This document shows, in pieces, positions 15,736 through 19,195 of a stretch of DNA of 64,000 nt (positions are counted from its first letter, which is position 1; the number at the start of each line of letters is the position of its first letter). A model generated the notes under the pieces. The model did not search any database. It was given only the letters and a program-made list of their open reading frames with translations, and had not been told where the DNA came from. The DNA is from Longimicrobiales bacterium (lineage in GTDB: Bacteria; Gemmatimonadota; Gemmatimonadetes; Longimicrobiales; Gaopeijiaceae), in assembly GCA_951813395.1 (NCBI GenBank), contig OX638356.1, positions 1,963,340 through 2,027,339 on the forward strand, in the 5' to 3' direction. Made by a program: the position numbers and the translations under genes.

Positions 15736-16998
15736 TCACGCGGCGGAGTTGCTGGACTGGCCGATGGCGCGGAAGAGTTCGTCGCGGGAGCGCTGGACGG
15801 CTTGGGCGGCGTCGAGGTCGGTGGTTGCGGCGGCGAGTTGGTCGAGGGCACCGAGGGTGACACCGGGCCGGAGGAAGGCTTCGGCGCCGGGCAGGGCCTT
15901 GAAGCGCTCGTGGGGCGTGGTCACGTCCTGTTGCCGGTAGCGCCGCTTGACTCGGCCGGTGGGGCTGGTGATTTCGGTGGGGAAGAGGCAGGGCCGGTGG
16001 AAGTTGAGGAAGGGGCAGAGGTGGTCGTGGAGGAAGGCGTTGACCTGGGGGACGAGGGCGTGGGGGACGTGGATGTGGCCGAGCCACTTGCGGACGACGG
16101 CTCCGTTCTTGGTCTCGACCAGCGCGTTGTCGTTGGGATGGCGGGGCCGGGACTTGGTGAAGACGCCGACGTGGAGCTTGTTGAGCAGCGCGGCCACCCG
16201 GCCGTTGACGTATTCGCTGCCGTTGTCCGCATGGAAGGCGTGGACGGTGAAGGGGAAGGCGGCCAGCAGGGCTTCGAGGCGCGGGACGAGGAAGTGCTGG
16301 GTGATGCGCGGCACGGCTCCAAGGTGTTGGAACTGCGTGACTTCGTCGACGACGTTGATGAGATAGATGCCCTTCCGGTCGTCGCGGTCGCCGAGGTGGA
16401 CGGTGTCGACGCGGAGATGGCCGGGTTTGCCATCCGGCCGCGGCTTGCGGCGGATCCCGATGGCGATGGGAGTGGACCGGGTCTTACGGAAGGTGAGGCG
16501 GCCGGTCCGGTACGCGCGGGTCTTGCGGAGGTTGTAGATGTGGCCGTTGGAGATCGAGGCGAGGCGTGCGAAGCGTCCGTCGCCGTAGACCTCGTGCATG
16601 CGTTGCAGGACCACCTTGGTGGCGGGTCCGGAGGGCTGGCCGAAGGCTTCGTCGACCTCGGCGAGCAGAGCGGCGTCGTGGGGCGTGTAGCGCCGCCGGA
16701 AGGCGTTGGCCGGGGGCTTGTTGCGGTGGTCGCGGATGTGGCCCGTCCGGCGGTGCTGTCGGATCAGGCGGGTGACCTGGGCGCGGGAAATGCCCGTCGC
16801 CTTCTCAAGGAACCGCTTCACCAGCCCCTTGTCGGGCTTCCCGAGGCCGTGGTACTCGAAGCGGACCAGCGTGCGGCGGACGAAGACGTAGGCGGAAGTG
16901 CGGTCGGTGATCTGGAAGTCCGCAGATTCGTTGCCTTCCACGAAGGCGCGCATCTGGTCGAGCGTCCGGATTCGTTCGGTGCGAAGTGTCACGATCAT
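15736..16998 (-). CDS. DDE (rve-type) transposase, copy 1
   Basis: Encodes 420 residues and is identical in sequence to the protein of copy 2 at 54172-55434. The N-terminal third carries helix-turn-helix-like patterns ('GISRAQVTRLIRQHRRTG', about residues 69-86). The catalytic core has Asp198 in 'LRVDTVHLG', Asp258 in 'FHADNGSEYVN' and Glu295 in 'DNALVETKNG', the integrase-like D-D-E spacing. It catalyses cut-and-paste or copy movement of its own element. The family resembles IS481-type integrase-core transposases, but the exact family is not certain. The frame is intact, yet one end of this copy is split, so it may be immobile. Confidence 0.92.
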   Translation of the reverse strand: MIVTLRTERIRTLDQMRAFVEGNESADFQITDRTSAYVFVRRTLVRFEYHGLGKPDKGLVKRFLEKATGISRAQVTRLIRQHRRTGHIRDHRNKPPANAFRRRYTPHDAALLAEVDEAFGQPSGPATKVVLQRMHEVYGDGRFARLASISNGHIYNLRKTRAYRTGRLTFRKTRSTPIAIGIRRKPRPDGKPGHLRVDTVHLGDRDDRKGIYLINVVDEVTQFQHLGAVPRITQHFLVPRLEALLAAFPFTVHAFHADNGSEYVNGRVAALLNKLHVGVFTKSRPRHPNDNALVETKNGAVVRKWLGHIHVPHALVPQVNAFLHDHLCPFLNFHRPCLFPTEITSPTGRVKRRYRQQDVTTPHERFKALPGAEAFLRPGVTLGALDQLAAATTDLDAAQAVQRSRDELFRAIGQSSNSAA

Positions 16999-17132
16999 CC
17001 TCCAATGATCTCTTCGCCCCGGCCTTCAGGCTCACTTCCCGCTGGAAACCGGCCCCGCGTTCAGGCTCATTTGCCGTTGGACCGCTCATGGCCGCCCCTT
17101 GGGGCTGGCCACCCCGAGGCACTGAAACTATG

Positions 17133-17270
17133 CTGCGGCCCAGGGGCAGAGGTCGTCAGTCTTATTGGTGCTGGGGAGCCCGGGTTGGACCATGACCCAC
17201 GGCGCTTCGAGGGATCCCGCAGTGTTGACACGGCCCGGCAAGGCCGTGATCACGGACAGAACAATCACGT
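17133..17270 (+). ncRNA. Candidate bridge RNA of the IS110 element
   Basis: Three foldable parts occur in order. First, CTGC/GCAG (17133-17149). Second, a 6-bp stem GGTCGT (17151-17156) with ATGACC (17192-17197) closes an internal loop. Its 5' strand holds AGTCTT (17158-17163) and its 3' strand holds GTTGGAC (17184-17190), capped by a CTGGG/CCCGG hairpin (17171-17183). Third, a perfect 6-bp hairpin CGTGAT/ATCACG (17245-17269) has ACAGAAC in its loop. AGTCTT complements the right flank of the insertion and GTTGGAC equals the left flank. ACAGAAC equals the right end of the element. This is the expected layout of a target loop followed by a donor loop. The 5' and 3' limits are guesses. Confidence 0.65.
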
Positions 17271-17320
17271 TTTCACAAGCGCCCGCCCCCGTGCATGGAC
17301 CATCACACAAAGGAGCCGGA

Positions 17321-18556
17321 ATGGACTTGATGAACGAGCGGTGCGCGGGCCTCGACGTGCACAAGAAGAGCGTGGTGGCGTGCGTTCGCACCCCGGCGCG
17401 GAGCGGTGGGAGCCGCCGGAGGAAGGTGACGCGCACCTTCGCGACGACGATGGCCGGGCTGGTGGCCTTGCGGGACTGGCTCGGATCGGAGGCAGTCACG
17501 CATGCAGCCCTGGAGTCCACGGGCGTGTACTGGCGGCCGGTGTACGCGGTGCTGGAACCGCACTTCGAGCTGCTGTTGGTCAACGCCCGCCACGTGAAGC
17601 AGGTTCCGGGGCGCAAGACGGATGTCAAGGACTGCGAGTGGCTCGCCCAGCTGCTGGAGTGCGGGCTGCTCAGAGGGAGCTTCGTGCCGCCACCCGAGTT
17701 CCGCGATCTTCGGGATCTGACCCGGCTGCGCAAGGTGCTGGTCCGGGAGCGGAGCAGGCAGATCAACCGGGTGGCGAAGACCCTGGAACTGGCCAACGTC
17801 AAGCTGGGCTCGGTGGTATCCGACATCATGGGGAGGACGGGACGGGCGATCCTGGAGGCGATGATCGAGGGCGAGGAGGACCCGCACGCCTTGGCCGACT
17901 TGGCCCGCGGGTCGCTTCGCCGCAAGCGCAAGCAGCTCGCCGAGGTGGTGCCCGGCCTGATCCGGGATCATCATCGGTTCCTACTGCGCGACCTTCTGGG
18001 CACGATCGACCATCTGTCGCGGCGCATCGACACCCTCGAGGTCCGGATCGAGGAGGCGACGCGCCCTTTTTCGGCGGTCCTTGATCTCCTTCAGAGCGTG
18101 CCGGGAGTGCGGCGGCGGTCTGCGGAAGCGATCCTGGCGGAGATTGGCGATGACATGACGAGGTTCCCCACGGCCCGGCAGTTCGCCTCTTGGGCCCGCG
18201 TCTGCCCGGGCAACCACGAGAGCGCCGGAAAGCGAAAGCCAACATCGACCGGCAAGGGCAACACATGGCTGCGGGACGCGCTGTCGCAGGTGGCGTGGGG
18301 AGCAGCCCGGACGAAGAGCAGCTACTACCGGACGCTCTACTATCGTCACCGCAGCCGCGGCGGTCCGAAGAAGTCGATCGTTGTCGTCCAGCATGCGATC
18401 CTCACCGCGATCTGGCACATGCTCTCAACAGACTCCTTCCACCAGGACCTCGGACCAGACCACTTGAAGCGCGACAAGGCCCGCCAGACACGGCATCTTC
18501 TCGCCCGCCTCAAGAAGCTTGGCGTCGATGTGCACGTGCGAGAGAAGCCTGCCTGA
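17321..18556 (+). CDS. IS110-family transposase (DEDD recombinase)
   Basis: Encodes 411 residues from ATG 17321, with AGGAG seven bases upstream. The N-terminal RuvC-like domain has the DEDD set: Asp12 in 'AGLDVHK', Glu65 in 'ALESTGVYW', Asp101 and Asp104 in 'KTDVKD'. A charged coiled region follows. The C-terminal domain has 'LQSVPGVRRRSAEAILAEIG' (split: LQSVPGV, SAEAILAEIG) and 'SWARVCPGNHESAGKRK', with Ser301 as the expected nucleophile. In this family the protein works with a structured RNA that pairs with target and donor DNA. The reading frame is complete, so the element could be active. Confidence 0.95.
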   Translation: MDLMNERCAGLDVHKKSVVACVRTPARSGGSRRRKVTRTFATTMAGLVALRDWLGSEAVTHAALESTGVYWRPVYAVLEPHFELLLVNARHVKQVPGRKTDVKDCEWLAQLLECGLLRGSFVPPPEFRDLRDLTRLRKVLVRERSRQINRVAKTLELANVKLGSVVSDIMGRTGRAILEAMIEGEEDPHALADLARGSLRRKRKQLAEVVPGLIRDHHRFLLRDLLGTIDHLSRRIDTLEVRIEEATRPFSAVLDLLQSVPGVRRRSAEAILAEIGDDMTRFPTARQFASWARVCPGNHESAGKRKPTSTGKGNTWLRDALSQVAWGAARTKSSYYRTLYYRHRSRGGPKKSIVVVQHAILTAIWHMLSTDSFHQDLGPDHLKRDKARQTRHLLARLKKLGVDVHVREKPA

Positions 18557-18674
18557 TCCCGAGAATCGCCCCAACCATTACGACAGTCGCCACAAGGAGA
18601 TGCCCGCAACTTGAACGTGGATCTGGGAACCCATCCCCGTCGACCCCGCGTCCCGAGTTTCACAGAACAAGACT

Positions 18675-18838: not shown

Positions 18839-19195
18839 ATGGCGAAGTCCTATATTCCGCTCCTGATCATCCTGGGCGTTACGGTTCTCAACGCCGTCGG
18901 GATGGCTGCCGCCTCCCATATCCTCAACCCCCGCCGCCCAACCCCCCAGAAGGCGATGCCGTACGAGTCGGGAATGATCCCGCTGGGCGATACGCGGACC
19001 CGCTTCTCGATCAAGTTCTACATGGTCGCGATCAGCTTCATCGTCTTCGACCTTGAGACCATCTTCCTCGTGCCCTGGGCCGTGCGGGTGCGTGAACTGG
19101 GCTGGGGGCCGTTCTTGGCTGTGTTCCTGTTCGTGGTCGTCCTCGCGGTCGGACTGGTCTACGAATGGAAGAAAGGCGGTTTGGAATGGGACTAG
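18839..19195 (+). CDS. nuoA: NADH-quinone oxidoreductase subunit A
   Basis: Encodes 118 residues with three membrane segments (about 7-27, 62-82, 90-110). It is a small membrane subunit at the junction of the peripheral and membrane arms of complex I. The conserved loop '[21 protein letters not shown]' (split: [18 protein letters not shown]) and '[16 protein letters not shown]' identify it. First gene of a complete nuoA-N operon; its stop overlaps the nuoB start. Confidence 0.96.

What the first reader, a model, noticed from the sequence alone, without database searches (positions are those of the whole stretch)
17133..17270. Candidate bridge RNA whose target loop matches the actual insertion site
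In the noncoding left end of the IS110 element a 6-bp stem (17151-17156 with 17192-17197) and an apical hairpin (17171-17183) enclose an internal loop. One loop strand holds AGTCTT and the other holds GTTGGAC. The element sits exactly between GTTGGAC (17076-17082) and ACAAGACT (18667-18674). So one guide equals the left flank and the other is the complement of the right flank, as in the IS621 bridge RNA model. Predicting both target halves from the element's own RNA is unlikely by chance. The order of the guides implies that the target is read on the minus strand.
Basis: partly seen in the sequence, partly recalled or inferred. Interest (0 to 1): 0.88.

Follow-up and report, generated by a model that had tools for sequence, protein, structure and literature searches.

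The report
Bridge RNA with mirrored target guides
A small jumping gene carries an RNA whose two short guide stretches spell out the exact place where it inserted (the tip of another jumping gene), and across about 70 relatives in many bacterial phyla the guides change together with the insertion site, but their order is the reverse of the best-known system (IS621).

Summary
The element (17083-18668, core AC counted once) is an IS110-family IS, one of two identical copies. Seven empty copies of its target in the same genome read GTTGGAC-AAGACT, the terminal 13 bp of an IS481-like element. The left-end RNA has AGTCTT (17158-17163) and GTTGGAC (17184-17190) on opposite strands of one internal loop. 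A 69%-identical family in this genome has different guides and sits in a different repeat, whose 15 empty copies match those guides. Across 80 relatives from many phyla the RNA is conserved in sequence and fold. The 3' guide equals the left flank (z=22), the 5' guide is complementary to the right flank (z=8), and a donor-loop strand equals the element's own right end (z=16). IS621-order controls are null. The two junctions share a core that reads CT, TT or GT on the minus strand in 51 of 52 loci. So it is a bridge RNA (seekRNA) encoded in the left end, like IS621, but with target and donor guides mirrored, the order published for IS1111. The function is known; this pairing of location and polarity is not described in the text of the papers held here. 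No transcript was tested.

The parts
17083..18668 (+). IS110-family insertion sequence, about 1586 bp, counting the AC core once
   Evidence: Two identical copies share these borders; empty target sites
17076..17082 (+). Left half of the target plus core (GTTGG-AC), inside the end of an IS481-like element
   Evidence: Empty IS481-like ends read GTTGGACAAGACT
18667..18674 (+). Core AC plus right half of the target (AAGACT), the tip of the interrupted IS481-like element
17143..17303 (+). Bridge RNA (seekRNA) as matched by covariance model R1; sense with the transposase gene
   Evidence: cmsearch 91.9 bits, though the window is among the model's 30 sequences; structural covariation; GU 107 versus AC 26 gives the strand
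17151..17156 (+). Target-loop closing stem, 5' arm (GGTCGT)
17158..17163 (+). [quoted passage not shown]
   Evidence: covariation with right flanks
17166..17182 (+). Apical hairpin between the two target guides
   Evidence: Helix 2
17184..17190 (+). 3' target guide GTTGGAC, identical to the left flank, so it pairs with the bottom strand
   Evidence: covariation with left flanks
17192..17197 (+). Target-loop closing stem, 3' arm (ATGACC)
17201..17207 (+). Donor-domain closing stem, 5' arm (GGCGCTT)
   Evidence: Helix 3
17277..17283 (+). Donor-domain closing stem, 3' arm (AAGCGCC)
   Evidence: Helix 3
17256..17262 (+). Donor guide on the 3' strand (ACAGAAC), identical to the element's own right end plus core (18662-18668)
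   Evidence: z=16 across 64 loci
17321..18556 (+). Transposase/recombinase, 411 aa, DEDD_Tnp_IS110 plus Transposase_20
   Evidence: Pfam, NCBIfam NF033542 'IS110 family RNA-guided transposase', IS621 structure 8wt6
17123..17129 (+). Left subterminal inverted repeat TGAAACT
   Evidence: Inverted copy in the right end; GAAAAT/ATTTTC counterpart in many relatives
18656..18662 (+). Right subterminal inverted repeat AGTTTCA
15736..16998 (-). Transposase ORF of the interrupted IS481-like element
   Evidence: rve domain below Pfam's cut-off; best NCBIfam match transpos_IS481, also below cut-off; six identical ORFs in the genome

Best explanation
The left end of this IS110-family element encodes a bridge RNA (seekRNA), sense with the transposase gene, that carries the address of the insertion site. 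[quoted passage not shown] a second domain reads the element's own ends. The 411-aa DEDD recombinase, loaded with this RNA, would join the circular form of the element to the target at a shared dinucleotide (AC here; AG in most relatives, which is CT on the minus strand). Relative to IS621 the whole DNA-reading arrangement is mirrored against the RNA/transposase strand although the RNA stays in the left end. Shown here: anatomy, empty sites, conserved RNA fold, guide-flank and donor-end covariation, core agreement. Inferred: transcription, binding to the recombinase, and chemistry like that of IS621.
For: Empty and filled sites for two guide sets in the same genome. Left flank equals 3' guide: 72 loci, z=22; 42 loci with dissimilar guides, z=16.5. 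Right flank complements 5' guide: 56 loci, z=8.3; strict set of 33, z=7.1. Donor strand equals right end: 64 loci, z=16. The IS621-order controls give z=0.6, 0.6 and -0.3. RNA structure: 94.8-95.7% of cells paired, 18-22 pairs with compensatory changes, 0/500 shuffles as good. Strand: 107 GU versus 26 AC. Core agreement 51/52, second base T on the minus strand in all. IS621 copies analysed the same way show the opposite order. ISArsp3, a named relative, shows the mirrored order on its left flank.
Against: No transcript or activity data. The 5' strand of the donor domain could not be paired with the left end of the element. In L090 the right flank does not fit its 5' guide although the left does. 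Per-locus right-flank fits are weaker than left ones. Relatedness among loci inflates the permutation z-scores, although the strict set keeps the signal.
Confidence: 0.93

Rival explanations
1. The RNA copies of the flanks are a by-product of transposition (captured flank DNA, or an element end duplicated inside the element), not guides.
For: The left matches are direct copies of flank sequence inside the element.
Against: The two half-sites lie on opposite strands of one conserved internal loop, one direct and one complementary. Empty sites exist without the element. The same positions co-vary in about 70 insertions, also when similar guides are thinned out.
Confidence: 0.03
2. The conserved structure is an mRNA-leader or DNA hairpin that regulates the transposase, and the matches are chance.
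For: It lies directly upstream of the transposase gene; the single-sequence fold energy is not unusual (z=+1.0).
Against: Chance is excluded (0 of 62,231 positions; permutation tests). A regulatory role besides guiding is not excluded.
Confidence: 0.02
3. A bridge RNA of the ordinary IS621 polarity, with the reader and this analysis mislabelling the strands.
For: The function is the same, and the core reads CT on one strand.
Against: IS621 run through the same reading gives the opposite order. GU/AC asymmetry puts the RNA on the transposase strand. The mirrored order holds in the target loop and in the resolved donor strand.
Confidence: 0.02

Closest known systems
IS621 bridge RNA (IS110 group; Durrant 2024, PMC11208160; structure PMC11208158, PDB 8wt6)
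   Same: RNA in the left end upstream of a DEDD recombinase; two guides per target loop around an apical hairpin; donor guide for the element's own end; CT-type core; insertion in repeats.
   Different: IS621's 5' guide equals the left flank and its 3' guide complements the right flank; here the target guides and the resolved donor strand are the other way round, and the core reads CT/TT/GT on the minus strand. Transposase 411 versus 326 aa.
ISEc21 seekRNA (IS110 family; Siddiquee 2024, PMC11187229)
   Same: Upstream noncoding region; seekRNA shown to co-purify and to be programmable; target lies inside another IS.
   Different: Bottom-strand match precedes the top-strand match in ISEc21; here the top-strand match comes first.
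IS1111-family seekRNAs (ISEc11, ISPa11, ISKpn4; PMC11187229; IS4321/IS5075 cited there)
   Same: Top-strand match precedes the bottom-strand match; some members insert in transposon terminal repeats.
   Different: IS1111 RNAs lie downstream of a 330-350 aa transposase with long subterminal inverted repeats; here the RNA is upstream and the transposase 411 aa.
ISArsp3 (Arthrobacter, named in RefSeq annotation, 44% identity)
   Same: Same RNA model hit (33.4 bits); left flank AAGTGAGTTT equals its 3' guide.
   Different: Different guides and target; host is actinobacterial.

Membership tests
IS110 family (DEDD recombinase with bridge RNA/seekRNA) | DEDD N-terminal domain plus Transposase_20 C-terminal domain | tested here: met
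   PF01548 and PF02371 above cut-off; NF033542 267.9 bits against cut-off 140
IS110 family (DEDD recombinase with bridge RNA/seekRNA) | Noncoding RNA whose loops match both halves of the target | tested here: met
IS110 family (DEDD recombinase with bridge RNA/seekRNA) | RNA transcribed and bound by the recombinase | not testable with these tools
   Needs small-RNA sequencing of the purified protein
IS110 family (DEDD recombinase with bridge RNA/seekRNA) | Insertion at one site in one orientation without long duplication, dinucleotide core at both junctions | tested here: met
IS110 group (IS621/ISEc21 type) | RNA encoded upstream of the transposase gene | tested here: met
   Model match upstream of the gene in the window and in nearly all relatives with upstream sequence
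IS110 group (IS621/ISEc21 type) | 5' guide pairs with the bottom strand (equals the left half), 3' guide with the top strand | tested here: not met
   Opposite order; IS621-order controls z=0.6, 0.6, -0.3; IS621 control
IS1111 group | RNA encoded downstream of the transposase gene | tested here: not met
   RNA is upstream
IS1111 group | Top-strand match precedes bottom-strand match | tested here: met
IS1111 group | Long subterminal inverted repeats (7-17 bp) near both ends | tested here: inconclusive
   7-bp TGAAACT/AGTTTCA, but the left copy lies 40 bp in

The most novel reading that the evidence does not exclude
A large clade of IS110-family elements (transposase about 400 aa, in many phyla) forms a third architecture: bridge RNA in the left end, as in IS621, but guides in mirrored polarity, as in IS1111, with the CT-type core read on the strand opposite the RNA gene. 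Guide polarity is then not tied to where the RNA gene sits, and the donor junction has been inverted relative to the RNA/transposase unit at least once.
Probability: 0.6. Interest if true: 0.6.

Novelty: new variant of a known kind. Interest (0 to 1): 0.5.

Why it matters
It gives a structure-conserved set of natural bridge RNAs with readable target guides outside the IS621 and ISEc21 branches, so new programmable recombinases can be picked and addressed directly from sequence. The mirrored polarity with a left-end RNA separates two features that were thought to go together, which bears on how IS110 and IS1111 elements diverged. It also explains why the two families in this genome sit in the ends of other repeats: the guides match end sequences that are present in many copies.

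Tried and rejected
Rfam scan found no family. Single-sequence folding was uninformative (z=+1.0), so covariation was used instead. Unanchored matching of right flanks over 400 nt was weak (z=5.0); anchoring on the donor-guide match fixed this. The other donor guide (5' strand of the donor domain against the element's left end) could not be resolved. IS621-order pairing and the other strand combinations were tested: the two IS621-order pairings and two others were null (|z| 1.1 or less), and two gave a weak z=2.6. Structure prediction was not run because the family assignment by sequence was already clear. ISSso6 was fetched as a second control but not resolved.

Full report
OBSERVATION. The element is a 411-aa DEDD transposase gene (17321-18556; PF01548, PF02371; NF033542 'IS110 family RNA-guided transposase'; best solved relative IS621, 8wt6) with a 238-nt left noncoding end. 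A second, identical copy lies elsewhere in the same 4.09-Mb genome. Aligning the two shows the same left border, next to diverged copies of the same IS481-like end, and divergence directly after ACAAGACT on the right.

EMPTY SITE. The left flank is the end of an IS481-like element. Six identical copies of that element's transposase ORF are present in the genome, and uninterrupted ends read ...GTTGGACAAGACT followed by unrelated DNA. So the target is GTTGG-AC-AAGACT, the terminal 13 bp of that element, and the dinucleotide AC is present at both junctions of the insertion. A related site, ATTGGAAAAGACT, occurs at the opposite side of the IS481-like ORFs, two mismatches away, and is not the site used in the two insertions seen.

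CHANCE. Over 62,231 other positions in the window, both half-sites occur somewhere in the 138-nt stretch for 62 positions, and in the two loop strands for none.

SECOND GUIDE SET IN THE SAME GENOME. A 69%-identical family (L003-L007) has 5' loop strand AAGCGTTTC and 3' strand GACGCGGAACC. Its flanks are GCGGAA on the left and AAACG(C/T) on the right. The predicted empty site TTTGCCGCGGAAACG occurs 15 times exactly, while seven near matches read TTTGCCGCGGAACCT, the sequence of the occupied left junction. The site lies at the ends of a DUF222/HNH repeat. So the guides change and the target changes with them.

FAMILY-WIDE TEST. A scan of one genome for each of 84,980 species gave 80 relatives at 43-74% identity, from Gemmatimonadota, Chloroflexota, Cyanobacteria, Bacillota, Acidobacteriota, Actinomycetota and others. 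An alignment of 30 left ends gave a conserved fold, which became covariance model R1. R1 found the RNA upstream of the gene in nearly all relatives searched that have upstream sequence, and ten times in the window's own genome. The structure has 95.7% standard pairs on the alignment not fitted to it, 18 of 26 pairs with changes on both sides, and 0/500 shuffles as good (81 sequences). GU pairs (107) far exceed AC (26), so the RNA is on the transposase strand.

GUIDES AGAINST FLANKS. The 3' target guide equals the sequence next to the conserved left terminus: 72 loci, mean 85% match against 64% for other loci's guides, z=22. With guides that differ by at least three bases, 42 loci, z=16.5. The donor strand equals the right end of the element: 64 loci, z=16. 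With the right end located that way, without using the 5' guide, the right flank complements the 5' guide: 56 loci, z=8.3; strict set of 33, z=7.1. The same tests in IS621 order give z=0.6, 0.6 and -0.3. These z-scores do not correct for relatedness.

CORE AND POLARITY. The dinucleotide at the right end is AG (41), AA (10) or AC (1, the window), and the left junction carries the same one in 51 of 52 loci (33.5 expected). On the minus strand these are CT, TT and GT, with T in second position throughout. IS621 has a CT core with a nearly invariant second T (PMC11208158). Three IS621 insertions read in the same way show 5' guide = left flank and 3' guide = complement of the right flank, the published order (PMC11208160). 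The window element and its relatives show the reverse in the target loop and in the resolved donor strand. Siddiquee et al. (PMC11187229) report that order for IS1111-family RNAs, which lie downstream of the gene, and the IS621-like order for the one IS110-type element they tested. The element here combines the upstream position with the reversed order. ISArsp3 agrees on its left flank. The papers' text does not describe this combination in the passages read; their figures could not be seen.

MECHANISM. The most likely working model is that of IS621: recombinase plus bridge RNA joins the circular element to a target with a matching core, the two target guides choosing the site. Steps shown here are the anatomy, the conserved RNA, the guide-flank, donor and core covariation and the empty sites. 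Expression, binding and catalysis are inferred from the family. One donor guide was not resolved, and one locus (L090) fits only on its left side.

VERDICT. The kind of system is known since 2024; the mirrored polarity with a left-end RNA, conserved across phyla, is the new part.

Noticed in passing
L208 (G000:C1:3145000-3147000), L210: A DUF222/HNH repeat, about 1.7 kb with shorter derivatives, carries TTTGCCGCGGAAACG near its ends and is the target of the second IS110 family in this genome.
   Followed up: partly
L021 / G000:C1:180945-181103: A bridge-RNA match (87.9 bits) with no transposase hit beside it in the protein search: an orphan left end.
   Followed up: no
window 17123-17129 and 18656-18662: Subterminal inverted repeat TGAAACT/AGTTTCA, with a GAAAAT/ATTTTC counterpart in many relatives; the left copy is 40 bp from the end.
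   Followed up: partly
L109, upstream of the RNA: The left flank lies just after what looks like a tRNA 3' end (GGTTCGAATCCCGTCGGGAGCACG); its 3' guide matches the flank CAGGTCAGT exactly. The tRNA was read by eye, not scanned.
   Followed up: no
window 18839-19195: The insertion sits about 165 bp upstream of an ORF that looks like nuoA, followed by nuoB- and nuoC-like ORFs; names are from reading the sequence, not from a family search.
   Followed up: no
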